Source of the DNA: Coriobacteriia bacterium
GTDB lineage: Bacteria; Actinomycetota; Coriobacteriia; Anaerosomatales; Anaerosomataceae
Assembly: GCA_016938135.1 (NCBI GenBank)
Contig: JAFGVD010000015.1
Location: forward strand, 1 to 64,000
Length of the DNA stretch: 64,000 bases
Direction of reading: 5' to 3'
Under the pieces are notes generated by a model. That model saw nothing but the letters and a program-made list of their open reading frames with translations. It did no database searches and had not been told where the DNA came from. A program made the position numbers and the translations under genes. Of this stretch, positions 35,839 through 60,856 are shown one piece after another. Positions within the stretch are counted from its first letter, which is position 1; each line of letters opens with the position of its first letter.

Positions 35839-36495
35839 CTAGCGAGCGCCCACGGCTCCCGGTGACGCAGCGCACTTACACGCCAGCGACTTGATATCGC
35901 AAGGCATGCGTATCTGGCTGATAGACATCCCTTCCGGACGGACGACGCGAACCGCCGGAGTGAGCAGCAGGACGCCCTTCACGCCTGTCTGGCCGAGAAG
36001 ATCCAGCGCGACCTGAACCCACGATGGCGAGCACGCAACTAGCGCGACCTCTATCCCAAGCGCCGGATTCAGATCAGGGAGCTCGGTGATGTGCTGGACC
36101 GTGATGCCGCCAATGACCGTCCCGGCGTCTTCAGGCAGCTCTGAGAAGTAGGCGGCGGGCTTGACGCCATACCTGTCCGGCGGGAAAACGACCTCAAGCG
36201 CGGCAAGCATGGCGGCGCTTCCGATCTTGACGATGGGGTACTCCTCGGAAAGACCAAGGAAGCGCGTGAACTCCTTGAACAGGACCTCCGGCTCATACCC
36301 TGCACCCGGCCTGCCGATGTCGCCCACAAAGGAGATATCGCGACGGACGGTCTCCTCTTTGATGTCGAGCTCCTCGGCGATGGCACGCGACGTGATACGT
36401 GCAGGAGCGCCAACACGGATCAGCTCACTAAGGTAGCAGTGATACAGAGAAAGACGGTACAGGGTGGCATCCGGAGCGGTGCGAGTATCAGACAT
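35839..36495 (-). CDS. Rex-like transcriptional regulator with non-canonical Rossmann motif
   Basis: TSRAIAEELDIKEETVRRDISFVGDIGRPGAGYEPEVLFKEFTRFLGL winged helix; VKIGSAAMLAAL in place of GxGxxG; C-terminal MPCDIKSLACKC. Confidence 0.82.
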   Translation of the reverse strand: MSDTRTAPDATLYRLSLYHCYLSELIRVGAPARITSRAIAEELDIKEETVRRDISFVGDIGRPGAGYEPEVLFKEFTRFLGLSEEYPIVKIGSAAMLAALEVVFPPDRYGVKPAAYFSELPEDAGTVIGGITVQHITELPDLNPALGIEVALVACSPSWVQVALDLLGQTGVKGVLLLTPAVRVVRPEGMSISQIRMPCDIKSLACKCAASPGAVGAR

Positions 36496-37071: not shown

Positions 37072-37439
37072 GACGGCCGTTCGCCCCACGCACCGAGCCG
37101 TAGCGATATCCTCCGCCATATGACAGCCCCGACGGCTACCCCGCCAAACATCAGGACGTGCTTGATGATCAGCGCCGGAACGATGCCCTTCACTACCGCA
37201 GGGTCCCATTCGTACTGCGAGAAGAAGATCGTGCGTGGTATTCCCCCGATGATGATCCACGCCAGTGAGATCCAGGCGAGCTTCACCAGCCGGGGATATG
37301 CGGCTTCAAGCAGCGAACCCGCGACTCCGTCGCGCGTAACCGCACGGTCGAGCGCCCACAACACCACTGCGCTTGTCACCAGTACTGCCGAGGCGACATC
37401 GTGCAGGTAGTTGTTGATGATGATGACCACAGACATCAT
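37068..37439 (-). CDS. Hypothetical integral membrane protein
   Basis: Multiple hydrophobic helices; 4-bp overlaps on both sides. Confidence 0.65.
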   Translation of the reverse strand: MMSVVIIINNYLHDVASAVLVTSAVVLWALDRAVTRDGVAGSLLEAAYPRLVKLAWISLAWIIIGGIPRTIFFSQYEWDPAVVKGIVPALIIKHVLMFGGVAVGAVIWRRISLRLGAWGERPS

Positions 37440-37930
37440 GGGGTGGGACTCGTCTCTTCGCCGGAGTCAGTTTCATCGAGTGATGTCACGGCGTTGACCA
37501 TCCATTGCCCCTCTTGGAGGAGGAGGTCGTAGCGCAGACGGTACTCGATGCCGGTCTCACTCGCCACCGTCTCACTCGTGTCGAGACTCTCATGGACGTA
37601 GTCCCAGAGTTCGAATGTCGTCACGCTTGCGGTCTCCGGCTCGGGAAATGTGACCTCACCGAACTCGATAGACTTGAGCTCAGCGATCATCCGCACGCGG
37701 CTCTCGCCAAGTGCCGCCATCTGATAGAACTCGGTTAATGCCTGGTCCTCGGTGGCGACAGTGTTGAGTAGATTCATGTCCTGCTGCGCATAGGCCTGGG
37801 CAAGCGCCGTGTTGTATGCGCGCACTACATCCCTCACCTGCAATGCGGCGTCAACCTCCTCGGCACCCGTGCATCCGCCTGCAAACAACGCGACAGCCAG
37901 GACCGCTATGAGAATCCCAAGCCGCCTCAC
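37436..37930 (-). CDS. Lipoprotein, possible NTF2-like fold
   Basis: LFAGGCTGAEE lipobox; VVRAYNTALAQAYAQQDMNLLNTVAT...EYRLRYDLLLQEGQWMVNAV. Confidence 0.7.
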   Translation of the reverse strand: MRRLGILIAVLAVALFAGGCTGAEEVDAALQVRDVVRAYNTALAQAYAQQDMNLLNTVATEDQALTEFYQMAALGESRVRMIAELKSIEFGEVTFPEPETASVTTFELWDYVHESLDTSETVASETGIEYRLRYDLLLQEGQWMVNAVTSLDETDSGEETSPTP

Positions 37931-38757
37931 TGGAAATACACCGCATGGAGCGAATCGGACAAAATCGACGTGCCGAATAGCGAGAACAGAGCCAAAGCGA
38001 CACAGACGATCAGCAGCAGCGCCGCTCGTTTGCCCTCCCATGCGTAGAAACGCCGCACGTGAAGATAGATGCCGAACGCCAACCAGGTGACCAGCGACCA
38101 TGTCTCCACCGGGTCCCAGCCCCAGAAGCGACCCCATGAGTAGTACGCCCATATCGAGCCTGTAAGCATGCCGATCCCCCAGAACGCGAACGCGAGCCCG
38201 CCGAACCGGTACGAGATATCGTCAAGGCTCTCCAAGCTCTGGAATCGACCCGTTGCCTCCAACTCAAGGTCTTTGCCGCGCAAGATCAGAGCGGCACTGG
38301 ATAGCGCGATGACCGCAGTGGCAAAAGCGAGGACATAGAAACAGACATGGATGACCAGCCATATACCGCTGAATGTTGGCGGCAGGTTGTGCACCTCGGC
38401 ACCCGTGTAGAGGCCAAGCGCCATCATCAGGAACACAACGGGGTAGACGATCATGCCCAACACCTGCAGACGATCTCGCCGGTAGACGATGAGAGCGAAC
38501 ATAACGGCGGTCACGAACGCATAAGCGGACAGCATCTCGTACTTGGTCACATACGGCCCATGGCCTGACCCTGCCCAACGCGCACCCAACGCCAGAGCGT
38601 GAACGCCGATCGCGAGCGGAACCACGTTACCGGCCCACCTGACAAGCCCTGGTCTACGCAGGAAGCGACCGCCGATCAACATCATGGCAGCCAGGGCATA
38701 CAGCACTATGGCCACGACATGCACGCGTGTCTCAGCCTGCAGAAGAAACGCGCTCAT
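37927..38757 (-). CDS. ccsB: Cytochrome c biogenesis protein CcsB/CcsA (System II)
   Basis: WGRFWGWDPVETWSLVTWLAFGIYLHVR heme-handling WWD-type domain. Confidence 0.92.
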   Translation of the reverse strand: MSAFLLQAETRVHVVAIVLYALAAMMLIGGRFLRRPGLVRWAGNVVPLAIGVHALALGARWAGSGHGPYVTKYEMLSAYAFVTAVMFALIVYRRDRLQVLGMIVYPVVFLMMALGLYTGAEVHNLPPTFSGIWLVIHVCFYVLAFATAVIALSSAALILRGKDLELEATGRFQSLESLDDISYRFGGLAFAFWGIGMLTGSIWAYYSWGRFWGWDPVETWSLVTWLAFGIYLHVRRFYAWEGKRAALLLIVCVALALFSLFGTSILSDSLHAVYFQ

Positions 38758-40070
38758 GAGCTGCCCTCTTCATCTGAACCGAACAATGCGTCCCTCTCCT
38801 GATCAACCGAACGGGCGAACCTGTAGGCGTTCCAGCGAGCCCATGTCTGTCCGTTTTCATCGGTGCGAAGCCGGACCTCTCGCGGTACTCCAACATAGAG
38901 TGCCGTCGCGCCGAGAAACACCAGGGCGAAACCGGCGAACAGGGGGATGACACTCCATTCACGGGCGAGAACGAACGTCGCCCAACGTCGCCTTCCGTCA
39001 AGTCGCACTGTAACATCATCAAGAGAGACCGTGTCGGTCGTCATAGTCGACTGAGCCACAACCTCGCCATCAAGCTCACGACGAAGCACGAACTCGGGCT
39101 CGTCGCTCATCGACTGAGTTCCCGGATCTTCCACACACTTCAAACGCAAGACACTCCCGTCTTGCAGCGGTATGTCCATGTAGGTGGGATTCCCGACACC
39201 TAGCGGTTGCGACAAATCGGCGCGCTGCATCAACTCCGTACCATCCGGAAAGGCCACAGTCAGGAAGTACGAGTAGCCGAACCTCTGGTCCTGGTATATC
39301 CTCACGCCCCTTACGACACGCGAGCCGTTAATGGAGACCGTCAGCTGCTCCTGTTGAGCTGAGTCGCCCAACAAGATGACAGTCTCCAGCTGACGTACGC
39401 TCCCGTCATCCCAGAACCGCGGCGTCACCGACGCCAACTCCAGAGGCTCTTCAAGACTTAGAGGACTTGCCAGTACTCCATAATCCTGCGCCACGACTTG
39501 GGTGGTCGCGTCAAGGCTTTCGCCTTCCACAAGAACGACCATGCTTCGCGCTGTGGTCAGGATGGTAAGCACTGCGAACGCAAGTGCGATGAGCATACCT
39601 AGATGGAGCAGTGACGCGCCCCATAGATTCCATGGGTTCTTCAGGAACCTCGATTCGTCGCCGATCCGACCCGCAGCCCAGTAACGAAGCGCGGCCATCG
39701 ACTCTTCAAGACCGGGTCGGTCACCGACAACATGCCAACCCGAAAGCCCGGACCACGTCCGCGGTCGAAACGTGCGGCGATAGTCTCGTCTCAACATATT
39801 AAGCGTCGCGAGACCCAGGGTCAGCCAGCACAGCGCCAGCAGGAACGCGAATCCCCAGGTAGAAACCACGTGATCAAGTCCGGCTGCCTTGAGTGCGTCC
39901 ACAAGGAAAGGAGCCTTGGCCTGTAGCGCATCAAGACCATCCGGACTGGTCACACGTTGCGGGACAAGCGCGGCCAGAAGTACGGCTATCCCTAGGCCGG
40001 AAATCAGCAGCAGAACCGTTCTACGAGATAGCATGACTCGCTTCAGTTGACGACCCAGCGTTCGTGGCAT
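38754..40070 (-). CDS. resB: Cytochrome c biogenesis protein ResB (System II)
   Basis: N-terminal TM cluster, GASLLHLGMLIALAFAVLT, large periplasmic domain with FGYSYFLTVAFPDG; overlaps ccsB by 4 bp. Confidence 0.9.
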   Translation of the reverse strand: MPRTLGRQLKRVMLSRRTVLLLISGLGIAVLLAALVPQRVTSPDGLDALQAKAPFLVDALKAAGLDHVVSTWGFAFLLALCWLTLGLATLNMLRRDYRRTFRPRTWSGLSGWHVVGDRPGLEESMAALRYWAAGRIGDESRFLKNPWNLWGASLLHLGMLIALAFAVLTILTTARSMVVLVEGESLDATTQVVAQDYGVLASPLSLEEPLELASVTPRFWDDGSVRQLETVILLGDSAQQEQLTVSINGSRVVRGVRIYQDQRFGYSYFLTVAFPDGTELMQRADLSQPLGVGNPTYMDIPLQDGSVLRLKCVEDPGTQSMSDEPEFVLRRELDGEVVAQSTMTTDTVSLDDVTVRLDGRRRWATFVLAREWSVIPLFAGFALVFLGATALYVGVPREVRLRTDENGQTWARWNAYRFARSVDQERDALFGSDEEGSS

Positions 40071-40089
40071 ACGAGTCACTGGCGCATCA

Positions 40090-43000
40090 TCACCAGCCTG
40101 TATCGGTCCCGTCGTACACAACGTGCGAGCCGCACCCGCTCGCAGTGGTGACGGTGCAGTTGTTCTTGGTCATGAACGTGTAGCTCACTGAATAATTGCT
40201 GACGTACACGGTGGTCTTGTCTCCCAGATAAGCGTATCTGCTGGGCATGGTGCCATTCGCATCAGCAATCAGGCGCCCGAGCTTGCTTCCGTGCGGCACG
40301 ATAGTGTGACAACGATAGCAGGCAGCAGATGCGTGCGCACCGGTCGACGCAGTGTGCGCTCTGTTATCTGAAAATCCATTGTGGCAGTTGTCACAGAGGA
40401 GGCCCGTCTGTGTACCGGCGGCGAGCCCGTTGATCGTGTATGGGGTACCTGTCGAAGTAAAAGGCCAATAACCCTTGAGCATGTGCGGCAAAGACGAACC
40501 GTGCGGCCCAACAGCAGCCGAATCCGTACTACGCGGTCCATGGCAATCAGAACAGTACATCGTCTGAGTCCCCACAGCCTTCCAACCGGTATCCATCCAG
40601 TCTGCGTTGAGCGCCTTCGTGGAGCCAAGAGGCGCAACCACGGGATGATACGAAGCATTGTTCGGGTTGAAGTCCAGCGCAACGTTAGTCCACAGGTTGG
40701 CGCCTGTCCCACCCCACGATGTGACATTCGTATTAGCACCCGAGTGGCACTTGAAGCAGATCTGGTACTCAGCGTACTTCGAGCTTGCGGTCGTCGTCTT
40801 GGTGTAGCCGGTGGGAGCTGTCCAGTTGGCACCCGGCGAGTACGTAGGCTCCTGACCCCATGCGCCCCAAAGCGGCGAACCGCTCGCGATAGTACTGGTA
40901 CCCGTGGTATGGATCGTCGAGCCTGAGACGCCATTTCCCGTGGCGTGCGCATCGTGGCAGTCCTCGCACTCGACGTGTTTGTTCGCGCTTATCTCCGCCT
41001 GTGTCTCGTCCGACTCATGGACGCCCGAGTACGTGCCGACTCCATGCTTCTTGATGGACCAGGGAGAAGTCGTGTTGGCGTACGACGAACCAAAGAGCAG
41101 CGAGACGCTCTGCGACCTCGCACTCATAGTCTTAACGCCGTAGCCGTCGCTCAGCGTAGAACCCGTGTGACAGGCGAAGCACAGGTTCTCCTCGGTGGGC
41201 GAACCGGTTGCCCCAAGTGCTGCCGCTATCCTGCTCTCGGCTGACGTGTGCGTCCCTATCTTGTAGGTGCCGGTCTGGAACCACGCGCTGGTCCCGGCGC
41301 TGTCGGTGTGACACTTAGTGCAGTTGGCCTGGAAGGCCGAGCCATCGTCATAGCCCACCTTGGCTACGCTGTTAACAGCGTAGTCGTGCGCCTTGCCTGC
41401 ATATGTGCTGCCGCTGATCACAGGAGTGGCCTCTGAGCCGCCGACCTTCTGCTGCGTGCTCTTGGTCTGCGCCACATCGTGACAACTCACACAGATACCG
41501 TACGGAGCCGACGACGAGTAATCGGTGCTCGCTGCCGTGCCGGTGTTGTCGTCGATGCTGGTACGCAGGTTAGTGCTCTTGTCAGTGAAGTAGTTGTGAT
41601 CGGTGTGGCAGCTCACGCAGGCGAGCTTATTGTCAGAAATCGGGTACGTGGCGGTCGCTCCGGGAGCCATGTCCGACCCACGCACATCATCCGTGTCCAT
41701 AGCATGATGATACGTGTCCGTGGATGAATCCATGACGCTATACGCTGAGTGGCACAGATAGCAGTCCATACCACCGGGAGAGACGCCACTGCCGGGATTG
41801 TGAACGTTGATGCCGCTGTCTGCGGTCATCGTACCGTGACACGTAAGACAAGATGCCGAGTCATCACGATAGTGCCCGCTCAGCTCCGGGACCTTGAGTC
41901 CTACGACCCCAGACCTGACTGTGCGGTCTATGCCCTCTATCTCTGCTCCCGCCGAGACAACCGCATACGCGCTACCATTCCAACCGTAGGCGTCTGTATT
42001 CCCCGACGAAGACCCGCACGTCGTGTGGCAGGTGAAGCAGAACTCGCGAACGCCCAACGCATCGGTCAGGTCGAGTTCCCCGTTCGAATCACCGACTGCG
42101 ATCGTGGTATCGGCGCTCGTCTGAGTGATGACCAGCAGCCCGTTGGGAGTGGCGGAACCATGGGGGTTATGGCAGTCGTAGCACGGAAGCGCCGACTCAG
42201 CTGGCAGCGTGCCTGTATCGCTCTCGATCTTGTGGCCAAAGCGAGTGCTCGTCGTCTGAGTGGCTCCCCCGCCCGCCGTCGACGGATAGTACTGCTTGAT
42301 GTTGTAGCCCGTCGTCGTTCCATCGTGGCAATCGAAACACAGTGTGAAGTCAGTGGTCGTGAAAGTGGAGACAAGGCCGTCGTAGTCGTTGTCAGCACGA
42401 TGCGAAACGTGACAGTAGAGGCAGTCCCCCTCCACGCGCGCCGGATCGGCTGCTGATGCCGGGATCGTCGCGTGCGGGTTGTTTGCGTCACTCAGGTACC
42501 CCGGGAACGTGCCCACCACGGGATAGCCTGTGGCGTCCCTGGTGGGAGACGTCACGTCGTACGTCTCCGTACCCGAGTACCAATCATTCGTGCCGTTGTG
42601 ACATGCTAGACACCAGTCGTTTCCGACGCTCGCCACGGCAACGCCGTTGACGGTCTGCGCAGGCAACATCGTTCGCGTGGCTGGATCGAGGTGTGGGGAG
42701 TGGCAATTAGTGCATACGTCAGTGAGGTCCCCATCAGTGGCCGCCTCTTCGACCGAATGCCCACTCGGCATGGCGGCATCGAAAGAGTTCTCACCAGACT
42801 CCACGTTCTTCTCGGCAAGGGTGCCGTCATGGCATGTCAGGCACACGGATGTCTGACCCGGCGTACTACCTGTCTGTCGCATCAAGATACCCGCGTCAGC
42901 GGCTTCGTGGACCGAATGGCACATCTTACAGAGCGCCGTCCCTGTCGTATACGTCCCGTGCGGCGATGGCGGCTCCCATGCTGCTGACACCGGACCCGCG

Positions 43001-45441
43001 ACTTCTGACTGAGCCGAGATGTTGCCCGCTGCATCGTACGCCTTCACTGCGTAGTAGTAGTTCTGGCCGGCGACGCCTGATTCATCGTCGAACGACAACG
43101 AGGTAGTGTTGCCGATAGGCGTGAACGGACCGGCAGGGTTAAGGGCACGCAGCACCGTGTAGCCCACAGGGTCGCCGCTTGAAGCGGCCCACGCGATGGT
43201 GGCGATCGTGGGATCTGCTACACCTGCGGTGAGGGTGCTTATGACGGGGATACTTGGCGGAGTGACATCAAACGAGCTATCCGCGCTATAGAACTCCATC
43301 GTCTGGACATCATTGCTGTTGAGGCCGTCAGAGACCGTCCCGGCCGCTACGCCGAGCGTATAGAGTACATCGGCCGTCTGCGCACTCGTTGTCAGCAGAA
43401 CCGTACGTGAATCCGCCTGCAGCACAGCGCTGGAGACGGTGAGCCCACCGGAGAGCGTGAAACCGCTGGCGTTCTCGAGCGTGACGCTCTCGCTGAAGAT
43501 CGCCTGAACCGTGGTCGAGTCCACGGGCACCAGCGACTGCAAGGTGGGCTTCACATTGTCCACAAGTAGAGAGCTAAGTGCCGAAAGCTCATTGCCGGCC
43601 GCATCACTGAAGAGGGCGGAGACGATGAAAGTGACTCCGTCCGCCTCGGGAACAGTGAACTCCGGGTCCCAAGTGGCAAACCCGGGGCTGGTGGCGGTAG
43701 CATCCGTCCAGACACTGGAGAAGACCCACTCGTCACCATCGAAATCCCAATAGGCATCGTCAGTCGAACGTTTGACCGACACCTTGACCGAGACTATGCC
43801 CGACAACGCATCGGCAGCAGTACCGGTGATCTGGTACTTGGAACCGGGACTCGCCGAGATGCTCGTTCCGGACGAGGGCTGGGTAAGAACGCAGCTCGTG
43901 GAATCAGGTGCCACGTTGTCCGTCACGACGCCTTCGCCCGACATCGTCGACGTCAGCGTGCTGAAGGTCGTCACGACGGCAGGGGCGTTCACACCGATCC
44001 CACCATATTCGATCTGCGAGCCTATACCTTCGCTGTGTTCGCATGAGGCCGCCACATCATAGGCAACCCACACGTCAACATGACCAGCATCCGGGACGAC
44101 GACACTGAGACCCGTGAATGCCGCGTTCGCTCCCGAACCATACGCCATGCTGCCAAGAAGCGTGTCCTCGGTCGCATCAAAGGTTCCGTTGCCATCATCC
44201 AGGTAGATCTTCACCAGTGAGACCGCTGCCGAGGTCAGGGTGTCGGGGCGGTGGACCGTTATCTTGTTGACTGTCACTGCGCCCTGTGAGGCCGCCAGCC
44301 TGATGTTGTCGATCAACACGCTGGTGGCCGGCGATTTCACGTACCTTACCGACGACGGGATATGATCCGCATTGCTCACCGTCAACCTAGGCGTCTTCAC
44401 TGCGAAAACGGTAGGCGAAGCGGGCATCGGCAGCCCGGATATCGTCTGGACGTTCGTGGTGGTGGTCGCCGTGACCTTGGCATCCATGGTGGCGCCATCT
44501 GTCGCACCGGAGGCAACGACATAGGTGACCAGGTACTGCTGCGACGTATCGGTGATCGCCTCGTTCACGGACACGGTCGCGTTGGCACCGGAGAACGTAG
44601 CCGCCGTGGCGTTCAGCTTGACATCGGTGCCTGCAGTCAGCGCCCCGTCGCCATTGACGTCTCTGTAGACATAGACACCGGACACATTGGCCTCGGGAGA
44701 GGTCTTGCTGTTATTCACTGTGAGCGTATTGATGACCGGCCCGGAAGTATCCCCTGCAGTCCTACGCAGTGAAAAGCGGTTGACCACGACCTCCTGCGAT
44801 GGCACTACATCGGCCGCCGTAGGCTGTCCGCCTGTATGCGCCGAGAAAGTGACCGTGTTAGGCGTCGTCGCCGTGTACTCCACGACGATCTCCATCTGGG
44901 TCACGCGGAGGCTTGCGGCATTGGTGAAGCTACCGATCACGATACCTTCAAGAGCCTGGACATCGGCCCAGCTCCAGCTGCCACCACCCGGACGTTCAGT
45001 GAGCGCTTGCTCGAAAGTCTGATATGCCGAAGAAACCGATGACGCCGATGCATAGGTCGTAGAACCGCTCAGGGCAAGACCCAGCTGGATGCTGGCGAAA
45101 GGCGTTCCAACACTCTTGTAGCCTCTTGCCACGACCCGCAGCGTCACCTTGCTGATAGTGCCGGTGGCCGAGGGGTCCGCCAGGCTTACACTTAGCGGGC
45201 TCGTTCCTGATGTGGTGACGTAGGTCGTGTCACCGTCGTTAGCGGAGATCGCCGTAGCGATCGTCCCCGTGTTCGCCGTCCATCCCGACGAACTCACAAC
45301 CGCATCCGGAGCGAGGCTCAGCGTGGCCGCTTGAGCCAGGGAGGTCGCAAAGGCCATGGCACCCGCAACCAGCACAACAAGCCCGACGCGTACCGCGCGG
45401 GCTAGCTTGTCTCCCTTGTGGATCCACCGACTCAAGCGCAT
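40090..45441 (-). CDS. Giant secreted multiheme c-type cytochrome (19 CxxCH) with Ig-like and FN3 domains
   Basis: Signal peptide; DNVKPTLQSLVPVDSTTVQAIFSESV Ig-like; PPSIPVISTLTAG...YYYAVKAYDAAGN FN3; 19 CxxCH motifs counted by eye (CKMCH ... CYRCH). Confidence 0.92.
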   Translation of the reverse strand: MRLSRWIHKGDKLARAVRVGLVVLVAGAMAFATSLAQAATLSLAPDAVVSSSGWTANTGTIATAISANDGDTTYVTTSGTSPLSVSLADPSATGTISKVTLRVVARGYKSVGTPFASIQLGLALSGSTTYASASSVSSAYQTFEQALTERPGGGSWSWADVQALEGIVIGSFTNAASLRVTQMEIVVEYTATTPNTVTFSAHTGGQPTAADVVPSQEVVVNRFSLRRTAGDTSGPVINTLTVNNSKTSPEANVSGVYVYRDVNGDGALTAGTDVKLNATAATFSGANATVSVNEAITDTSQQYLVTYVVASGATDGATMDAKVTATTTTNVQTISGLPMPASPTVFAVKTPRLTVSNADHIPSSVRYVKSPATSVLIDNIRLAASQGAVTVNKITVHRPDTLTSAAVSLVKIYLDDGNGTFDATEDTLLGSMAYGSGANAAFTGLSVVVPDAGHVDVWVAYDVAASCEHSEGIGSQIEYGGIGVNAPAVVTTFSTLTSTMSGEGVVTDNVAPDSTSCVLTQPSSGTSISASPGSKYQITGTAADALSGIVSVKVSVKRSTDDAYWDFDGDEWVFSSVWTDATATSPGFATWDPEFTVPEADGVTFIVSALFSDAAGNELSALSSLLVDNVKPTLQSLVPVDSTTVQAIFSESVTLENASGFTLSGGLTVSSAVLQADSRTVLLTTSAQTADVLYTLGVAAGTVSDGLNSNDVQTMEFYSADSSFDVTPPSIPVISTLTAGVADPTIATIAWAASSGDPVGYTVLRALNPAGPFTPIGNTTSLSFDDESGVAGQNYYYAVKAYDAAGNISAQSEVAGPVSAAWEPPSPHGTYTTGTALCKMCHSVHEAADAGILMRQTGSTPGQTSVCLTCHDGTLAEKNVESGENSFDAAMPSGHSVEEAATDGDLTDVCTNCHSPHLDPATRTMLPAQTVNGVAVASVGNDWCLACHNGTNDWYSGTETYDVTSPTRDATGYPVVGTFPGYLSDANNPHATIPASAADPARVEGDCLYCHVSHRADNDYDGLVSTFTTTDFTLCFDCHDGTTTGYNIKQYYPSTAGGGATQTTSTRFGHKIESDTGTLPAESALPCYDCHNPHGSATPNGLLVITQTSADTTIAVGDSNGELDLTDALGVREFCFTCHTTCGSSSGNTDAYGWNGSAYAVVSAGAEIEGIDRTVRSGVVGLKVPELSGHYRDDSASCLTCHGTMTADSGINVHNPGSGVSPGGMDCYLCHSAYSVMDSSTDTYHHAMDTDDVRGSDMAPGATATYPISDNKLACVSCHTDHNYFTDKSTNLRTSIDDNTGTAASTDYSSSAPYGICVSCHDVAQTKSTQQKVGGSEATPVISGSTYAGKAHDYAVNSVAKVGYDDGSAFQANCTKCHTDSAGTSAWFQTGTYKIGTHTSAESRIAAALGATGSPTEENLCFACHTGSTLSDGYGVKTMSARSQSVSLLFGSSYANTTSPWSIKKHGVGTYSGVHESDETQAEISANKHVECEDCHDAHATGNGVSGSTIHTTGTSTIASGSPLWGAWGQEPTYSPGANWTAPTGYTKTTTASSKYAEYQICFKCHSGANTNVTSWGGTGANLWTNVALDFNPNNASYHPVVAPLGSTKALNADWMDTGWKAVGTQTMYCSDCHGPRSTDSAAVGPHGSSLPHMLKGYWPFTSTGTPYTINGLAAGTQTGLLCDNCHNGFSDNRAHTASTGAHASAACYRCHTIVPHGSKLGRLIADANGTMPSRYAYLGDKTTVYVSNYSVSYTFMTKNNCTVTTASGCGSHVVYDGTDTGW

Positions 45442-45493: not shown

Positions 45494-45513
45494 GATGTGA
45501 ATCGTGTCACATC
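45494..45513. promoter_or_regulatory. Candidate Rex or CRP/FNR-type operator upstream of the giant cytochrome
   Basis: GATGTGA-ATCGTG-TCACATC; TGTGA-N6-TCACA core; ~53-72 nt upstream of the proposed start. Confidence 0.55.
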
Positions 45514-45579: not shown

Positions 45580-46572
45580 CTACTCGGCAACAGGCAAGCG
45601 CACGTTGTAGACCACTATCTTGCCGGTGTCAGCATCTGTCACATATAGACGCTGATCGGCGTCGATCCAGCACGCGTCGCGGGGGCTTGAGAGCGCCGCA
45701 TCCGGGTCCGTCAAATCAGCAGTCCAGATGCGGCGAATGCCGTCGTCGGCCACCACAGAAACACGTTTGCCGAACGTCTCTATCACGAACTCCTCGGAGT
45801 CTATTCCCTGCAAGACTCCGCGTGGCAGCGAGTAGCGCTCAGAGAGGCTACGGACGAGTCTGCCGCTTTGCGCGTCCAACACCACCACGCGTCCCGCGTT
45901 CGAGTCCGCAACATGCAGCCCGTCATCCGCAAGGAACATGCCTCCGCAGTAAGTCAGCGCCGGCATCAGTTCCTGCCCGAGCGTTCGCAGGTACCGACCA
46001 TCATCTGCCGAGAACACCAGGATCGTATGGCTCGCCCCATCGGCGACGAAGAGCTCGCCATCGGCGAATGCGAGAGCCGTTGGCTGCAACGGGACAATCT
46101 CGGCGTCATCTCCCAAGATCATCAGAAGCTCCGCGTTCTTGCGCGTGCTCAACACGAGTACTCGCAACGAAGCGCTGTCAATGACCGCGATACGGTGATC
46201 ATCCAAGACGGCGACGTCTGACGGGTAGGCGCTGCTGGCACCCTCGGCAACCGGGATCTGGATGTCATCCAGCCGTCGGGCATCCAGCGTGAACACCGCG
46301 ACCTTGCCGGCGTCTGACTCGGCTATGTAGAGGTTCTTGCCGTCCGAGTCGATGCCCATGGGGCCCTGCAATGCCGTATCCTCGGGCGCCGGAAATCGAC
46401 CGGCGTACATGATCTCTTCGGTGGAGCCTTCAGGAAACCCGGGGAATTCCACCCCCCCGCCTGCAGGCTGCAGCACCCAATAGAGGAGGGCTGCAGTGCC
46501 AAGAGCGAGCACAAGCGCGAGCGCGACAAGGAATGCCCGGTGCTTGGGAGAGTCGCTCATATTCAGGCGCAT
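45580..46572 (-). CDS. NHL-repeat / six-bladed beta-propeller membrane-anchored protein
   Basis: N-terminal TM, then repeats GPMGIDSDGKNLYIAES.AGKVAVF, LADDGLHVADSNAGRVVVLDAQSG. Confidence 0.85.
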   Translation of the reverse strand: MRLNMSDSPKHRAFLVALALVLALGTAALLYWVLQPAGGGVEFPGFPEGSTEEIMYAGRFPAPEDTALQGPMGIDSDGKNLYIAESDAGKVAVFTLDARRLDDIQIPVAEGASSAYPSDVAVLDDHRIAVIDSASLRVLVLSTRKNAELLMILGDDAEIVPLQPTALAFADGELFVADGASHTILVFSADDGRYLRTLGQELMPALTYCGGMFLADDGLHVADSNAGRVVVLDAQSGRLVRSLSERYSLPRGVLQGIDSEEFVIETFGKRVSVVADDGIRRIWTADLTDPDAALSSPRDACWIDADQRLYVTDADTGKIVVYNVRLPVAE

Positions 46573-46659
46573 GCTGGGCTCCTCGGCAGGTCTAGGCACG
46601 ATTAGTTGATAGTATCGCAAAACGCCGCCGGAGCTCAGGCATGGCGTCCTGGCATCAAC

Positions 46660-46731: not shown

Positions 46732-47703
46732 ATGCCCTTCAACGTGAGAAAACCGAAGTTCCGCCTGGTTATCTCCATAGCATTGCTCATAGGGTTGCTG
46801 CTCGTTGTGACGGCCATCGTCGGATCGTCACCCACGGCATGTGGCGCGTGCCACACTATGTCTCCTTACACGGAGGCACTACAGGAGTCCGCCCATTCGG
46901 ACATAGCCTGCTACGAATGCCACCTTCCTGCGGGCGCATGGGACTGGCCGGCGTTCAAGACGCATGAAGTCCTTGGGATGTACCCGGCTTCCATCATCAA
47001 GGCAAGGCTCGACGGCGCAGCAACGATGACCTCCCGGACCGCATGTCTGAAGTGCCACTCCGAGGTGCTCGAGGACGTCATCGAAGCCGGGGGTATCCGC
47101 ATCCAGCATGACTCATGCGCGCCTGAGGGCTCGTGCGATAGCTGTCACAGCACCGTAGCGCATGGCGAGAGCACGCGGTGGATCTTGGAACCCGCCATGG
47201 AGGACTGCATCGGCTGCCACCGGGACGAGAAAGCGCCAACCACATGCGACCTGTGCCACGCGGGCAAGACCACCGCAGAGCGCCTCTCAAGGGGCTCATG
47301 GGCGATCACTCACGGTCCGGAGTGGGAGACCACGCACGGCATGGGGGATCTACGTACGTGCGACGCCTGCCACGATGACAAGAAGTGTGCCTCCTGTCAC
47401 GACATCAAGCTGCCCCACCCGATGGACTTCGGGTCCACCCACCCTGCAGTCGCACTAGAGAACCCCGAGTCGTGCGAGACCTGTCACGACAGCGTTGCTT
47501 TGTGCGATGCATGTCACGGCATATCGATGCCTCACCCCGAGGGCTTCTTGTCAGAGCACTCCAAGATTGCCACCGGCACCGACGATGCGGTCTGCATCAG
47601 ATGCCACAAAGAAGCAGACTGCGTACGTTGCCACGTGGCACACACCCATCCGGGATCGACCGACGGACTGATCGGCGCCGGCCTCCCTGAGACGGGGAGG
47701 TGA
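46732..47703 (+). CDS. Membrane-anchored NapC/NrfH-like multiheme cytochrome (12 CxxCH)
   Basis: N-terminal TM; CGACHTMSPYTEALQESAHSDIACYECH; 12 CxxCH counted. Confidence 0.9.
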   Translation: MPFNVRKPKFRLVISIALLIGLLLVVTAIVGSSPTACGACHTMSPYTEALQESAHSDIACYECHLPAGAWDWPAFKTHEVLGMYPASIIKARLDGAATMTSRTACLKCHSEVLEDVIEAGGIRIQHDSCAPEGSCDSCHSTVAHGESTRWILEPAMEDCIGCHRDEKAPTTCDLCHAGKTTAERLSRGSWAITHGPEWETTHGMGDLRTCDACHDDKKCASCHDIKLPHPMDFGSTHPAVALENPESCETCHDSVALCDACHGISMPHPEGFLSEHSKIATGTDDAVCIRCHKEADCVRCHVAHTHPGSTDGLIGAGLPETGR

Positions 47704-47707
47704 CGGG

Positions 47708-48802
47708 GTGCAGGAGTACATCGACCAGATAGCCGACGTCATCGGCAACCCGACATCCAACCTCGTGGTCGCAGCACTGCTCCTGGCGGCTGTCACGCTC
47801 ATCGTGCTGATCCTCATCCTGGTGGCGCTGATCTTCCTCATGCCATCGCGGCACCACGACGAGGACGATGAGGGCGACCAGGACGATGAGGACATTCCCG
47901 AGAAGCCAACGCCTGCTCCTAAGCGAGAGGCACGCAAGCCTCTTCCCCGGAAACTGCAGATCTGGCTGTTTGTCGGCATCACGGCGGCGACAATCGCCAC
48001 TGCGTACGGCGTGACCTCAAGCGATGACTATTGCGCGAACACCTGCCACGTGATGGCGCCTTCGGTGGCCTCCTGGAACGAGGGGGCGCACAGCGGCATC
48101 TCTTGCGTCCGATGCCATGAAGGCAGGCTGGTGGTCTCGGCAGCATCCGGAAGCATGTCGCGGCTGCGCCAGCTTGCCGCACAGCTTGAGGGGAAAGAGC
48201 CCGTCTCGGCAGTCGTGTCATCGCGCACGTGCCTGAGCTGCCACGCAGCGCAGCTAGAGGGCTCGGTGGAGACGTCATCCGGGATCATAGTGAGCCACGC
48301 CGAACCGCTTGAAGCGGGCATGAGCTGCGATACATGCCACACCGCGGTGGCACATGAGCGCGAGGTCGCATCGCAAGCCACCATCATGACGCAGTGCCTG
48401 ACATGCCACGAAGGCACGAAGGCTTCCGCCGAGTGCTCCACGTGCCATACGGGAGATCCGGGAGCCACTCCTGTGTTCGAGCGCATCTACACGAGCACTG
48501 AGCTCCCGCAGCCCACCTGCGGCGGTTGCCATTCCGAGGAGAGCTGCGATGCGTGCCACGGCATACGGATGCCGCATTCGCAGGCATTCATCGAGGGAGA
48601 GCATGCCAAAGATGCCGGCTTCTACCGCAAAGAGGTGTGCTGGAACTGCCACCTGAAGACCGACTGCGGCGCATGCCACGGGGACTTCGACAACTCGCAC
48701 CCCGGGGACTTCTTCCAGACGCACAAGACGCTCTCACGCGAGTCCACGTGCAACACATGCCATCGCAACCATGAAGGTCCGTTCTGCGACAGGTGCCACT
48801 AG
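47708..48802 (+). CDS. Membrane-anchored NapC-like multiheme cytochrome (11 CxxCH + 1 CX3CH)
   Basis: GTG start; two hydrophobic segments; CANTCHVMAPSVASWNEGAHSGISCVRCH; 11 CxxCH plus one CX3CH. Confidence 0.9.
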   Translation: MQEYIDQIADVIGNPTSNLVVAALLLAAVTLIVLILILVALIFLMPSRHHDEDDEGDQDDEDIPEKPTPAPKREARKPLPRKLQIWLFVGITAATIATAYGVTSSDDYCANTCHVMAPSVASWNEGAHSGISCVRCHEGRLVVSAASGSMSRLRQLAAQLEGKEPVSAVVSSRTCLSCHAAQLEGSVETSSGIIVSHAEPLEAGMSCDTCHTAVAHEREVASQATIMTQCLTCHEGTKASAECSTCHTGDPGATPVFERIYTSTELPQPTCGGCHSEESCDACHGIRMPHSQAFIEGEHAKDAGFYRKEVCWNCHLKTDCGACHGDFDNSHPGDFFQTHKTLSRESTCNTCHRNHEGPFCDRCH

Positions 48803-48945: not shown

Positions 48946-49851
48946 CTAGAAGTCGAGACCAACACCTGTGGATGCGTCAGCACGGTGGCACTTCAAGCAC
49001 GCGCCGTCCTCGGAAGGATCGGCCGCACCCGTTGCGCTACCCACTGAAGCGAAGTTGACCGCGCTCAACAGGAAGCGATTGCCGCTCGTGTAGTGCGGGA
49101 AGTTGTCGGCAGCAGAGGCGCCGTCGGTCTCGCCCGCATCGTGACAGCTACGGCAATACGTGCTCGGTGCCCACGCAACAGTCGAATTGGCCGCGATTGT
49201 CGCCTTACTGTTCGCATAGTTGGCTGTGGCGTCACCCATGATGTGCATGTTTGCAGTAGCGTCGTCATCGTAGTCATTGGCCCAGTACGTGTGGCACTGC
49301 GAGCAGAACGCCGTGACGACACCATTGCGATCAGTACCGGTTGTGAAGTCGTAGGTCGTCTCAGCTGCAGTCACAGTACCGGACTGACCTCCGATAGCGG
49401 ACTTCAGGATCTTGGTGTTGATGTCACCTGCCGCGGTCGTTGAGATCGCACCTGCACCGTGAACGGTGTGGCAGTCGACGCACGTAGAACCGGAGCCTGC
49501 ATAGTGGTTGTTCTCGTAGTCGGTGGTGTAGTTTGCAGCGACGCTGTCGTACACCTTGACACTGGACACGGAGTTGGTGATATGGCAATACTCGCACGCG
49601 TTTGCAACCGTACCGCGCAGCAGTACTTCACCGCCGGCAGTCGCACGGTGGACCGCATGGCAGACAGCGCACTTGACGGTAGTCGTGCCATAGCCTGCAT
49701 GCGGGGTCTGAACAGTGGCGTTGGCACCAGTAGTGCCCCAAGCGGAGTACTGGTCGCCGTCAACGCCTGCGACGGCAAGTGCTGTGCCGGCGAACATCAT
49801 GGTGAACGCGCAAGCAAGTACAAGTACGATGGCTAGCTTCTTACTAGTCAT
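48946..49851 (-). CDS. Secreted hexaheme c-type cytochrome, OmcS-like layout (candidate nanowire subunit)
   Basis: Signal peptide MTSKKLAIVLVLACAFTMMFAGTALA; six CxxCH (CAVCH, CEYCH, CVDCH, CSQCH, CRSCH, CLKCH) plus exactly six other His; RBS GAAGGGAG before ATG. Confidence 0.9.
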   Translation of the reverse strand: MTSKKLAIVLVLACAFTMMFAGTALAVAGVDGDQYSAWGTTGANATVQTPHAGYGTTTVKCAVCHAVHRATAGGEVLLRGTVANACEYCHITNSVSSVKVYDSVAANYTTDYENNHYAGSGSTCVDCHTVHGAGAISTTAAGDINTKILKSAIGGQSGTVTAAETTYDFTTGTDRNGVVTAFCSQCHTYWANDYDDDATANMHIMGDATANYANSKATIAANSTVAWAPSTYCRSCHDAGETDGASAADNFPHYTSGNRFLLSAVNFASVGSATGAADPSEDGACLKCHRADASTGVGLDF

Positions 49852-49950
49852 TGAATCTCCCTTCGAATGAATCCCCATCATAATTTGATTTCACCTCCCC
49901 CGTTGAAGAATCAGATACTCGCAAAGCGAGGAATCTCCCCATTCACCCCA

Positions 49951-49970
49951 GCTGTGAATTGCTTCACAGC
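49951..49970. promoter_or_regulatory. Candidate Rex or CRP/FNR-type operator upstream of the hexaheme cytochrome
   Basis: GCTGTGAA-TTGC-TTCACAGC perfect 8-bp inverted repeat; ~100-119 nt upstream of the start codon. Confidence 0.65.
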
Positions 49971-52145: not shown

Positions 52146-53624
52146 TTAGAAGTCGATGCCTACCTTGTCGTGGCACTGCAGACACTGGCCGTCGAACGGA
52201 TAGCTGTAGTTGCGCAACATGAAGTTCTGACGTGTCCCATGAGGATCGTGACACGTAGACGTACATGTTAGCGGCTTCTGCGCGGCAACGTCATAGTGCT
52301 CGGGCCGAACGGGATGGTTGTTCCGATAAACGGTGGCGCTCGCCTCGTCGTAGTCCGCCGCGGCATGGCACTGCAAGCAGACCTCGGGGTTGGCCTTCAC
52401 GAGTATGGGTGCATAGTCCGAACCGTGTGGCGTATGGCAGCGGATGCACAGGATCCCGTCGTGATCGGATGCATCATACGAGGTCTGGATAGCCTGGGCG
52501 TGACACTGATAGCACATGTCGTTCCCCTCGGCTGCGAGCAAACCGGGATAGTCCGCACCGTGAGGATCGTGGCAGTCACCACAGTTCAGATCGGCGGTAC
52601 CCACCGGGTGGTGACTCGACTTCAAGAAGTCGTCTTGGATGTCCCCGTGGCAGATATAGCATACGTCGGGCTGCTCTTTGATGAGCAGCGGACGATAGTC
52701 CGAGCCGTGCGGCTCATGACATCCGGTGCAGTTGTCGTAGAGGAAGGGCTGGTGCTGCACGGACTTGAGACTGAGCGGCGCCACGCTGGGGTGACAGGTG
52801 AAACAAAGGTCGCGCTGGTTGTCGACCAAGATCCCCTCGTAGCGTGAAGCGTGCGGGTCGTGGCAGTTGGTGCAGTAGCGCCCTTCAACCGGCGGGTGCA
52901 CCTGCTCGCGCGCGAGCTCCGGACCCATCCGATGGCAGGTGATGCACAGGTCTTTCTCGGTGATTTTAAGAAGCGCCTTATTGTCCGACGCGTGCGGGCT
53001 GTGGCAGTTGGTGCAGTACCCACCCACGAACGGAGCATGAGTGTACTCATACGAGCGCATCGGGCCCATGTCGCCATGGCAGATCCAGCACAGCTCGTCT
53101 TTGGAGGTGGTGAAATCCGAGTTGATGCCTTTGACCTGCTCCTCGGTGATGCTCTTGATATCGCCGCCGGCGTCCTCGGCCGTCTGACCCTCTGCCGAAT
53201 AGAACGCGTCGACGATCATCTTGAGCGGAAGCCACTCGACGAGCGTCTTGGTGCGTTCCCATGTGAGCGAAGCGCTCTCGTATACGGTCGTCGTCTGTAG
53301 CTCGCCGTGCGGCGTGTGACAGGTGGTGCAGCCGCGCTGCTCGAACGGCAGGTGGACTGAAGACATCGAGAAGGATGGAATGAGATCGGAATGGCACTGC
53401 AGGCACTCGAGGTTCTCGGTCACGACCTTGATTTCATCGGGACCCTTACTGATCCAGGTCTCAACGATGGTGGTGACCCCAAGTAGAAGGAGGAGCAGTA
53501 TCAGGACGGCGGCGAACGCAGCCCTACCACGCTTAGGGCCACCATCTATGTCCAGTCCCTCCGGGGAAGCGAGTACGCCTTCCTCGAGGATCTCTGGGTC
53601 GCCCAATGAGCCTCCCTCAACCAT
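52146..53624 (-). CDS. Membrane-anchored multiheme cytochrome (14 CxxCH + 1 CX3CH; doubled-CxxCH repeats)
   Basis: TM AFAAVLILLLLLLGVTTIVETW; repeating C..CH...(15-30)...C..CH.PHGSDY units; CTSTCHDPHG is CX3CH. Confidence 0.9.
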   Translation of the reverse strand: MVEGGSLGDPEILEEGVLASPEGLDIDGGPKRGRAAFAAVLILLLLLLGVTTIVETWISKGPDEIKVVTENLECLQCHSDLIPSFSMSSVHLPFEQRGCTTCHTPHGELQTTTVYESASLTWERTKTLVEWLPLKMIVDAFYSAEGQTAEDAGGDIKSITEEQVKGINSDFTTSKDELCWICHGDMGPMRSYEYTHAPFVGGYCTNCHSPHASDNKALLKITEKDLCITCHRMGPELAREQVHPPVEGRYCTNCHDPHASRYEGILVDNQRDLCFTCHPSVAPLSLKSVQHQPFLYDNCTGCHEPHGSDYRPLLIKEQPDVCYICHGDIQDDFLKSSHHPVGTADLNCGDCHDPHGADYPGLLAAEGNDMCYQCHAQAIQTSYDASDHDGILCIRCHTPHGSDYAPILVKANPEVCLQCHAAADYDEASATVYRNNHPVRPEHYDVAAQKPLTCTSTCHDPHGTRQNFMLRNYSYPFDGQCLQCHDKVGIDF

Positions 53625-53728
53625 GCGTGAAGACCGGCGCACAAAGACAGTGCGCCCAGTCAGCAGTCTAACATGCCCCCGATGCCTGTTGAATACTTAA
53701 CGGTACTTCGACGTCGACCACGCATCCC

Positions 53729-54898
53729 CTAGTTGAGCAACCTCACCATCTGCACTCGGTTGTTCTCCTTGTCGGCGACGACAACGAAGTTGCGGTACAC
53801 CTCTACGTCGTTGGAGAAGTTGAACTGACCCGGGTCGACGCCTCGCTCGCCATACATCGCCACCAGCTCACCGTCCGCAGAGATGCGTGTGATGCCGAAG
53901 CGGAATGCATCTGTAACCAGCACGGAACCGTCAGACGCTACCGCCAGACCGCGCGGAAGCTCGATCCCTGTGGTTGAAGCCGCGGCATCAGTCCCGATCG
54001 TTGCAGTGGTCGCGCTAGTTTCAGCGGTTCCGGAGCTCTCGGCGGTCCCGCTCGTCTCGGCAGAGACGAATGACTTGCCGAAGTTCCAAAGCGGCTCTCC
54101 GTCGGGCGTGAACGCGGTCACGCGCGCATGGTTGGAGTCCGAGACATACACCGTGCCGTCCTCGCCAACAGCAAGTCCGTTAGGGTGGTCCAGGTCGCCT
54201 GGTTCAATCCCTGGCTTGCCCCACTGCGTGATGAGCTCGCCTTCCAGGGTGAAGACGAAGATCTGGTACTGGTCGGTGGCGTAGATGCGGTCCTGGTAGA
54301 CAGCCACGTCCGTCACGGCGATCCCGAGACCGTCTTGCCCGGAAGAGCCACGACCAACCACCTGATCCGGCTCCGGGAAACGGCGCAACGGCTTGCCGTC
54401 GGCGTCGAACACCTCGATGGAGTCGTTGCGGAAGCTCGCGACGTAGACGTTGCCCTCATCGTCGGTGTCGATACCCACGGGGAAGTTCAGACTCCCGGGC
54501 TCATAGGTGTTCTGTGCGCCGGCAAGCGGCTTGCCCACTCCAAAGCTGCCGAACTCGAAAAGGAAACGCCCGGAGGAGTCAAAGACGCAGACGCGGTTGT
54601 TCTCGCTGTCGGTGACGTAGACCCTGCCCTCGCTACCGACGGCAACGCCCATGGGACGACCGAACAAGGGGTTCTCCCCTTCGCCGGGACCAAACACCTG
54701 CCACACCGGCTGAACGCCTTGCGTAGGCTCCAGGTCCACCAGGGAGTCCGGCTTGTCCAGCAACACAAGCAGGTAGAGGATCAGCCCCACGAGCGCGATG
54801 GCAAGCATCACCGCCAAAGCGATGAACGCCTGGCGTGGCGTCAACATGAAACGCTTGCGAGGGGCCTTGACGGGGTCGACCGCTGCTGTAGGCATCAT
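53729..54898 (-). CDS. NHL-repeat beta-propeller, membrane-anchored
   Basis: FGRPMGVAVGSEGRVYVTDSENNRVCVFDSSGRFLFEFG; LDHPNGLAVGEDGTVYVSDSNHARVTAF. Confidence 0.9.
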   Translation of the reverse strand: MMPTAAVDPVKAPRKRFMLTPRQAFIALAVMLAIALVGLILYLLVLLDKPDSLVDLEPTQGVQPVWQVFGPGEGENPLFGRPMGVAVGSEGRVYVTDSENNRVCVFDSSGRFLFEFGSFGVGKPLAGAQNTYEPGSLNFPVGIDTDDEGNVYVASFRNDSIEVFDADGKPLRRFPEPDQVVGRGSSGQDGLGIAVTDVAVYQDRIYATDQYQIFVFTLEGELITQWGKPGIEPGDLDHPNGLAVGEDGTVYVSDSNHARVTAFTPDGEPLWNFGKSFVSAETSGTAESSGTAETSATTATIGTDAAASTTGIELPRGLAVASDGSVLVTDAFRFGITRISADGELVAMYGERGVDPGQFNFSNDVEVYRNFVVVADKENNRVQMVRLLN

Positions 54899-55533
54899 TC
54901 GGCTCCAAGAGCAGTGAGGGCGTCACGCGCTTCAAGAAGATCAGGCGCGTAGCGAAGGGCCTCTTCGTAACTTGCTATAGCATCGTCAGTGCGACCGAGC
55001 TTCTCGTAGCAAAGACCGGCCAGATACTGGAGGTCGGCGAGTTCCGGACGGGCCTCCGCAACAGGCTCCACGGCGACCAGCGCGGACTTGTACTGGCCCT
55101 TCTCGATGTAGTACTCACCCAGGGCTTTGGCCGCAAGCGCGTGATCCGGCGCTATCTCAAGCACTTCCCAGAAGGTCTGCTCGGCGAGCTTCTGCTCACC
55201 CGTCTGCATGTAGATGACCGCCTTGTTGTACAGCGCGGCGGTGTTGCCGGGGTCCTCCACCAGCACCAGGTCGTACTGCTCGACGGCCTTGTCGTACTCC
55301 TCGTTCTGTTGATAGGCGAAACCGAGCGAGAGGCGATCGTCGGTGTTGTCCGGATCGGCCGAGACCTTCTGCTCCCAGTCCTCGACGGCATAGGTCTCAG
55401 GGGTCACCGGGCCTTCATCAACGATGAGACCTCGAAGCATCCATCCGCCAAGACCCACAACAGCGAGAAGCAAGATGAGCACAAGCAGCGCGAGCCACGC
55501 GGGAACGAGCTGATCCTCATGATCCGAGGTCAT
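54895..55533 (-). CDS. Membrane-anchored TPR protein
   Basis: TM WLALLVLILLLAVVGLGGWML; YDKAVEQYDLVLVEDPGNTAALYNKAVIYMQTG repeats. Confidence 0.88.
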   Translation of the reverse strand: MTSDHEDQLVPAWLALLVLILLLAVVGLGGWMLRGLIVDEGPVTPETYAVEDWEQKVSADPDNTDDRLSLGFAYQQNEEYDKAVEQYDLVLVEDPGNTAALYNKAVIYMQTGEQKLAEQTFWEVLEIAPDHALAAKALGEYYIEKGQYKSALVAVEPVAEARPELADLQYLAGLCYEKLGRTDDAIASYEEALRYAPDLLEARDALTALGAE

Positions 55534-58331: not shown

Positions 58332-58339
58332 ATCTCCTC

Positions 58340-60831: not shown

Positions 60832-60856
60832 CGCGTGGGGCCTTCCGATAGCGGGT

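What the first reader, a model, noticed from the sequence alone, without database searches (positions are those of the whole stretch)
40090..45441. ~1780-aa chimeric cytochrome: N-terminal Ig/FN3 architecture plus a 19-heme C-terminal half
Roughly the first half carries adhesion-like repeats, including an FN3 domain and an Ig-like 'VKPTLQSLVPVDSTTVQAIFSESVTL' domain; the rest carries 19 CxxCH with long Ser/Thr/Gly-rich linkers and variable spacing. This suggests an extracellular, possibly cell-wall- or mineral-contacting, electron conduit. No obvious LPxTG or C-terminal TM anchor is present, so attachment is unexplained.
Basis: partly seen in the sequence, partly recalled or inferred. Interest (0 to 1): 0.78.

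Follow-up and report, generated by a model that had tools for sequence, protein, structure and literature searches.

The report
Surface electron-wire protein with adhesive stalk
This gene in a subsurface Gram-positive bacterium encodes a real secreted protein that fuses a stack of adhesion-type domains to a conserved 19-heme electron wire; wires of this family grow by whole 14-heme blocks in related bacteria, which may show how cells with thick walls pass electrons to minerals or electrodes.

Summary
One intact minus-strand ORF (1783-1787 aa) has a signal peptide, about 790 aa without hemes, then exactly 19 CxxCH motifs. It is not an assembly fusion: the Ig/FN3-to-heme junction recurs in giant cytochromes of other Anaerosomatales (OPB41, Coriobacteriia). 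The heme half is a conserved order-wide cytochrome, usually encoded alone (about 1,050 aa). In 20 aligned members all 19 motifs line up, and 21 of 27 other histidines of the core are invariant, which fits bis-His ligation. It lies in a conserved locus (NHL propellers, 6/7-, 14- and 11/12-heme cytochromes, ResB-CcsA, Rex). The same-genus syntenic ortholog lacks the Ig block, so the block is an optional module. Best explanation: a secreted surface electron conduit whose Ca-loop β-sandwich/Ig/FN3 stalk positions it or attaches it to wall, matrix or mineral. The anchor remains unexplained: no LPxTG, CWB2, SLH, lipobox or C-terminal TM. Location and electron transfer are inferred, not shown. It is a new variant of a known kind; FN3- and S-layer-cytochrome fusions are already known.

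The parts
40090..45441 (-). 19-heme cytochrome gene with N-terminal Ig/FN3 block (1783 aa from ATG 45441; 1787 aa from ATG 45453)
   Evidence: start chosen from the ortholog in L044
45328..45441 (-). Sec-type signal peptide (MRLSRWIHKG...VGLVVLVAGAMAFATSLAQA), no lipobox Cys
   Evidence: only strongly hydrophobic segment, mean 1.97 at aa 21
44869..45324 (-). D1, aa 44-195, predicted beta domain of unknown family; distant match in giant homologs
44398..44868 (-). D2, aa 196-352, beta-sandwich with DxNxDG (calcium-type) loop, same family as D3; AF2 pLDDT about 60-87; fold resembles N-terminal beta-sandwich of sialidases (Z 12.4, rmsd 2.8, 142 aligned)
43918..44397 (-). D3, aa 353-512, second copy of the D2 family; repeated up to 3 times in giant homologs and 5 times in L082
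43543..43917 (-). D4, aa 513-637, Ig-like region (no Pfam hit of its own)
   Evidence: sequence only
43246..43542 (-). D5, aa 637-736, Big_5 (SbsA-type bacterial Ig-like) domain
42970..43245 (-). D6, aa 737-828, fibronectin type III domain directly before the first heme; present in 20+ homologous ORFs
41167..42930 (-). 14-heme block (hemes 1-14), the unit repeated in giant homologs
40306..40968 (-). 5-heme C-terminal cap (hemes 15-19)
40093..40305 (-). Heme-free C-terminal tail with conserved C...H...W motif (His1778 invariant in 20/20)
45496..45511 (.). Palindrome TGTGAATCGTGTCACA, candidate Rex/CRP-type operator of the 19-heme gene
49953..49968 (.). Palindrome TGTGAATTGCTTCACA upstream of the 6-heme gene
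38754..40121 (-). ResB (cytochrome c maturation System II), directly downstream, conserved neighbour
37927..38757 (-). CcsA (cytochrome c assembly protein)
37436..38152 (-). YvbJ NTF2-like lipoprotein candidate (lipobox FAGGC)
35839..36495 (-). Rex-type redox repressor
45580..46620 (-). NHL beta-propeller protein with N-terminal TM, conserved directly upstream
46732..47703 (+). 12-heme cytochrome with N-terminal TM, NapC/NrfH-like first motif
47708..48802 (+). 11-heme cytochrome with N-terminal TM, NapC/NirT domain hit
48946..49881 (-). 6-heme secreted cytochrome
52146..53642 (-). 14-heme TM-anchored cytochrome (Paired_CXXCH x7), conserved in the locus
53729..54898 (-). Second NHL beta-propeller protein of the locus
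55530..56171 (-). Second Rex-type repressor, at the other end of the locus

Best explanation
A secreted multiheme cytochrome that carries electrons across the outer part of a thick-walled (monoderm) envelope. The chain is exported by Sec, and 19 hemes are attached outside the membrane by the ResB-CcsA pair encoded next to it. The hemes are held by two histidines each and form one continuous wire made of a 14-heme block plus a 5-heme cap. Electrons would arrive from membrane-anchored cytochromes of the same locus (11/12-heme quinol-oxidising type, then 14-heme, then 6-heme) and leave to an outside acceptor such as Fe(III) mineral, electrode or partner cell. The Ig/FN3 block is a stalk that sets reach and holds the protein non-covalently to wall polymer, matrix or mineral. 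Shown: gene, motif count and register, conserved histidines, locus, domain families, absence of known anchors. Inferred: bis-His ligation, direction of electron flow, surface location, stalk or adhesive role.
For: Signal peptide and no other TM. 19/19 motifs aligned in 20 proteins at 37-49% identity, and 21 of 27 non-motif His invariant against 68 of 878 other residues, Fisher p 1e-17. Conserved gene order NHL-7h/6h-14h-NHL-19h-ResB-CcsA-Rex in many genomes. Monoderm genome: no Omp85, two sortases, 54 CWB2 domains. Relatives include EMTCatB1, proposed from its transcriptome to take up electrons on a biocathode (PMC7943316); the order's two cultured members include an obligate Fe(III) reducer whose MHC cluster holds cytochrome biogenesis and Rex genes (PMC9686372). 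Ig block: Big_5, FN3, calcium-type loops, sialidase-like beta-sandwich. Palindromic operators sit upstream of MHC genes.
Against: No structure of the heme half: AF2 pLDDT 42.6, and no solved structure matches the family profile. No expression or localisation data for this gene; in EMTCatB1 the ortholog does not seem to be among the five highly expressed cytochromes (gene numbering inferred and PMC7943316). No anchor found. The same-genus ortholog has no Ig block, so the block is not needed for core function.
Confidence: 0.66

Rival explanations
1. Filament subunit: the 19-heme protein polymerises end to end into an extracellular cytochrome nanowire, with the conserved C-terminal Cys/His/Trp tail or an N-terminal His completing a heme site of the next subunit; the Ig block then decorates the filament or caps it.
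For: There are 21 invariant non-motif His for 19 hemes, so some are spare, and the invariant His1778 lies in a heme-free tail conserved from Anaerosomatales to Geobacterales and Verrucomicrobia. In-chain repetition of 14-heme blocks in giants shows the block can be joined in series.
Against: No structure; known filament cytochromes are small (OmcS 6 hemes, OmcZ 8; own knowledge). A 790-aa N-terminal block would need room on the filament. Giants that lengthen the wire inside one chain make polymerisation less necessary.
Confidence: 0.14
2. Electron store or soluble scavenger: the protein is released into the matrix and works as a capacitor or short-range shuttle rather than a cell-attached conduit.
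For: No anchor of any kind was found; strongly acidic (net -87) and Ser/Thr/Gly-rich, so probably soluble.
Against: The Ig/FN3 block and its conservation in giants suggest retention at a surface. Conserved co-localisation with TM-anchored cytochromes and propellers suggests a physical chain.
Confidence: 0.13
3. The Ig block is a partner- or sugar-recognition device (syntrophy or biofilm), not a stalk: it binds a polysaccharide or a partner cell so that electron exchange is specific. This concerns the block only and is compatible with the conduit role of the heme half.
For: D2 fold resembles the N-terminal beta-sandwich of sialidases (Z 12.4); D3 resembles biofilm proteins Esp and Bap weakly (Z 8.1). 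The fibronectin domain of the SRB cytochrome OetF was proposed to bind matrix or partner (PMC10553843).
Against: Shared fold shows no function; no ligand-site analysis was possible. D4-D6 are common spacer domains.
Confidence: 0.3
4. Assembly error or false fusion of an adhesin and a cytochrome gene.
For: The window comes from a 49-contig assembly, and the same-genus ortholog lacks the block.
Against: Homology runs without a break across the junction in G004, G013, G007 and G026; FN3-heme junction in at least five more genomes; uniform GC3 (0.71 in both halves); no second candidate gene in the genome.
Confidence: 0.01

Closest known systems
Multiheme cytochromes of Anaerosoma tenue and Parvivirga hydrogeniphila (PMC9686372)
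   Same: Same order; a cluster with multihemes, cytochrome biogenesis genes and a Rex-type repressor, as here
   Different: That paper names them only as MtrA/OmcH-like homologs; no Ig/FN3 block, 19-heme register or 14-heme unit is described in the passages read
ANME MHC types A, B and C (PMC9012536)
   Same: Very large surface cytochromes fused to heme-free surface domains (S-layer, peptidase-like, pectin-lyase-like), thought to cross a non-membrane outer layer
   Different: Archaeal; A and B have S-layer domains and C-terminal TM helices, both absent here; homology not tested
OetF of syntrophic sulfate reducers (PMC10553843)
   Same: A cytochrome c carrying fibronectin domains in an electron-transfer conduit
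   Different: Part of a porin-cytochrome system in diderm bacteria; different locus
Geobacter/Geomonas/Verrucomicrobia homologs (L072, L074, L088, L132)
   Same: Homologous to the second half of the heme region with the same C-terminal tail; L072 and L074 also have about 590-640 heme-free N-terminal residues
   Different: 13 hemes; diderm hosts; N-terminal domains only weakly similar
OcwA of Thermincola potens (PMC6703420)
   Same: Surface multiheme cytochrome of a thick-walled bacterium
   Different: Nine hemes, NrfA/HAO-type fold, no adhesion domains
OmpB multicopper oxidase of Geobacter sulfurreducens (reviewed in PMC5566968)
   Same: FN3 domain on a surface redox protein, proposed to help attach to Fe(III) oxide
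   Different: Copper enzyme, not a cytochrome

Membership tests
Extracellular multiheme c-type cytochrome (general class) | Export signal and several CxxCH motifs with candidate distal ligands | tested here: met
   Signal peptide; 19 motifs; 21 invariant non-motif His
Extracellular multiheme c-type cytochrome (general class) | Heme attached and protein exposed on the cell surface | not testable with these tools
   Needs protein chemistry
Anaerosomatales 19-heme cytochrome family (defined here) | 19 motifs in register, conserved tail, locus with NHL and ResB-CcsA | tested here: met
Fibronectin type III domain | Profile match at family level | tested here: met
   the protein alone gives no Pfam hit
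Big_5 bacterial Ig-like domain | Profile match | tested here: met
   8 of 9 aligned family members; this copy itself shows only Big_12 at E 0.089
MtrC/OmcA outer-membrane decaheme family | Ten hemes, lipoprotein anchor in an outer membrane | tested here: not met
   19 hemes, no lipobox, no Omp85 in the genome; only MtrC-F domain II/IV profile hits in the heme half
DmsE decaheme family (TIGR03508) | Curated score 192.2 | tested here: not met
   76.9 bits
[quoted passage not shown]
   No S-layer family in Pfam scan, no C-terminal TM
Sortase-anchored wall protein | C-terminal LPxTG-type signal, TM and basic tail | tested here: not met
   the genome does have two sortases
CWB2 wall-binding protein | CW_binding_2 repeats | tested here: not met
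   54 in the genome, none in this protein
Extracellular cytochrome nanowire (OmcS/OmcE/OmcZ type) | Polymerisation with inter-subunit heme contact | not testable with these tools
   No solved structure matched by the family profile; AF2 model unusable

The most novel reading that the evidence does not exclude
A length-adjustable molecular wire: a family of surface cytochromes in a monoderm lineage whose conducting part grows only in whole 14-heme units between a fixed start and a fixed 5-heme cap (19, 33, 61, 75 hemes), with an exchangeable Ig/FN3 stalk, so that reach through the wall is tuned by counting modules. The window protein is the shortest wire (n = 0) with a stalk.
Probability: 0.35. 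Interest if true: 0.75.

Novelty: new variant of a known kind. Interest (0 to 1): 0.52.

Why it matters
How thick-walled bacteria move electrons to solids is poorly understood, and Actinomycetota are hardly studied in this respect. This family gives a conserved candidate conduit with its own maturation genes, a candidate operator, and natural variants with and without the stalk (same genus) and with 0 to 4 extra 14-heme blocks. These variants make both the function of the stalk and the meaning of heme number testable; heme-number variation in homologous cytochromes was called an unexplored area in PMC7399161.

Tried and rejected
AlphaFold2 of the heme half (25 sequences) gave pLDDT 42.6 and was not used. 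AlphaFold2 of D2-D6 gave confident parts only in D2-D3; D4-D6 there are unusable. Foldseek/VIA hits to integrins, pilins and adhesins (Z about 8 or less) were not used as evidence of kinship, as such Z is common. A profile of the heme family found no solved structure; profiles of D3 and D5 found none either. Assembly fusion: rejected. Sortase, CWB2, SLH and lipobox anchors: none in the protein. A single-protein scan of genome contigs found nothing; the alignment scan worked. Biocathode expression support: I tried to place the EMTCatB1 ortholog on the paper's gene numbering from nuoD and V-ATPase positions; it does not seem to be one of the five highly expressed cytochromes, so I claim no expression support. 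A single origin of the Ig block: the five Ig-bearing cores as one clade are rejected (AU p 0.007), while window + same-genus ortholog is not (p 0.24). Rfam: nothing in 33000-58500. Largest-heme record: 75 is not a record (85 in PMC5566968; over 100 in PMC11475568).

Full report
OBSERVATION. The second start is more likely because the same-genus ortholog begins MRLNRVHK where ours has MRLSRWIHK. The ORF is unbroken. It has exactly 19 CxxCH motifs, the first at aa 842 and the last at aa 1712, and none with wider spacing. The only strongly hydrophobic segment is the signal peptide; there is no LPxTG and no C-terminal TM.

HEME HALF. Pfam sees Paired_CXXCH, Cytochrome_C7 and MtrC/F domain II/IV repeats; DmsE and other decaheme models are far below their cut-offs. 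A search of the window's own genome and 40 relatives found matches in 37 of 41 genomes. In most members of the family the heme half stands alone as a secreted protein of about 1,050 aa. In 20 aligned proteins, 37-49% identical to ours, all 19 motifs fall in register in every row. Of 27 histidines outside the motifs in our core, 21 are invariant, against 68 of 878 other residues (Fisher p 1e-17). This is what 19 bis-His hemes need, with a few histidines to spare. One invariant His (1778) sits in a heme-free tail C...H...W that also ends homologs in Geobacterales and Verrucomicrobia.

ORGANISM. Records that match the relatives are named Coriobacteriia, Anaerosomatales and 'Coriobacteriaceae bacterium EMTCatB1'. 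One relative contig (G003) has exactly EMTCatB1's length (1,838,614 bases), so I place the window in the order Anaerosomatales (OPB41). Its two cultured members are Gram-positive; one reduces Fe(III) obligately and carries a cytochrome cluster with biogenesis genes and a Rex-type repressor (PMC9686372). EMTCatB1 dominated a biocathode and was proposed to take up electrons through multiheme cytochromes (PMC7943316). The window's genome encodes two sortases and 54 CWB2 domains but no SLH and no Omp85, as expected for a monoderm.

LOCUS. Downstream are ResB, CcsA, an NTF2-like lipoprotein candidate and Rex. Upstream are an NHL propeller, 12- and 11-heme cytochromes with one N-terminal TM each, a 6-heme secreted cytochrome, another propeller, a 14-heme TM-anchored cytochrome, a further propeller, TPR proteins and a second Rex. 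The order NHL-7h/6h-14h-NHL-19h-ResB-CcsA recurs across many genomes.

IG BLOCK. The profile work divides it into D1 (44-195), D2 and D3 (196-512, one family with a calcium-type DxNxDG loop), D4 (513-637), D5 (637-736, Big_5) and D6 (737-828, FN3). AF2 is confident only in D2 and part of D3; D2 resembles the N-terminal beta-sandwich of bacterial sialidases (Z 12.4, rmsd 2.8 over 142 residues). The same-genus syntenic ortholog (L044, G001) goes from signal peptide straight to the first heme. Other genomes have FN3 alone before the hemes, and four have one to three [D3-D4-D5] units plus FN3 in front of giant cytochromes. An order-wide search found the block or parts of it in 12 of 69 genomes. 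The five Ig-bearing cores are not one clade (AU p 0.007); our core is not clearly placed next to its syntenic ortholog, although that grouping is not rejected (p 0.24) and its branch is long. The block is therefore an exchangeable module, and I cannot say whether it was gained here or lost in G001.

14-HEME UNIT. Giant homologs carry 33 (two genomes), 61 and 75 hemes, and one copy cut at its start has 72, beginning at heme 4. Each divides into hemes 1-14, n further blocks of 14, and the last five; all blocks but one align 14 of 14 motifs in register with hemes 1-14 of the window protein (the cut first block 11 of 11, the exception 12 of 14), whereas blocks taken 5 or 9 hemes out of step do not. 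Later blocks form their own clade, first blocks group with the 19-heme proteins. One giant (48 hemes) is off by one, and two more distant ones (39 and 44 hemes) do not follow the rule. The window protein is thus the base form: 14 + 5.

REGULATION. The exact palindrome TGTGA-N6-TCACA stands 55 nt upstream of the ATG at 45441 and 72 nt upstream of the 6-heme gene. In 602 kb of related loci there are seven exact copies, six of them within -160 to +20 of a multiheme gene (2.1% of the DNA, binomial P 6e-10); the seventh precedes a TPR gene in front of a giant. Rex (two copies flank the locus) or a CRP-type regulator would fit; which one is not tested. The pattern was suggested by the window itself, so at least the 45496 copy is not independent evidence; the copies in the other loci are.

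MECHANISM. I commit to a secreted surface conduit: Sec export, heme attachment by the adjacent ResB-CcsA, 19 bis-His hemes as one wire, input from the membrane-anchored cytochromes of the locus, output to an outside acceptor, with the Ig/FN3 block as a stalk and non-covalent anchor. Gene structure, conservation, locus and missing anchors are shown; ligation, direction, location and the stalk's job are inferred. The anchor is an open question.

NOVELTY. Cytochromes fused to surface domains are known: ANME S-layer and pectin-lyase fusions (PMC9012536) and the FN3-bearing OetF (PMC10553843). OmpB also carries an FN3 domain (PMC5566968). What I did not find described in the papers read is a 19-heme actinobacterial family with a fixed register, its optional Ig stalk, and the 14-heme counting rule. 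I rate it a new variant of a known kind.

Noticed in passing
L047 600-8555, L071 7325-12934, L048 2623-16710, L049 2041-17334, L069 3-11237: Giant homologs with 33, 33, 61, 75 and at least 72 hemes follow 19 + 14n; blocks align in register with hemes 1-14 of the window protein. L061 (48 hemes) is off by one.
   Followed up: yes
window 45496-45511 and 49953-49968; L037 3937; L038 4221 and 10487; L061 3694; L049 19032: Exact TGTGA-N6-TCACA palindromes sit almost only upstream of multiheme cytochrome genes or operons: a candidate regulon, perhaps of Rex.
   Followed up: partly
window 46732-48802: Two adjacent TM-anchored cytochromes (12 and 11 hemes) with NapC/NrfH-like first motifs, divergent from the 19-heme operon: likely quinol-oxidising entry of the chain.
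   Followed up: partly
window 45580-46620, 50041-51270, 53729-54898: Three membrane-anchored NHL beta-propeller proteins interleaved with the cytochrome genes; two are conserved across the order; role unknown.
   Followed up: no
window 35839-36495 and 55530-56171: Two different Rex-type repressor genes flank the cytochrome locus on both sides.
   Followed up: no
window 56196-63415: O-antigen-ligase-like/TPR protein, sugar transferase, glycosyltransferases and phosphomannomutase directly beside the cytochrome locus: a surface polysaccharide cluster that could supply a binding partner for the stalk.
   Followed up: no
P0001 aa 1766-1787 (window 40093-40158) and C-termini of L072, L074, L088, L132: A heme-free tail with a conserved Cys...His...Trp pattern ends this cytochrome and homologs in other phyla; the function is unknown (sorting, disulfide, or ligand for a neighbouring subunit).
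   Followed up: partly
L146 4298-5161 (G007): The start of the 75-heme giant lies in another frame next to unread bases, so its full length in that assembly is uncertain.
   Followed up: partly
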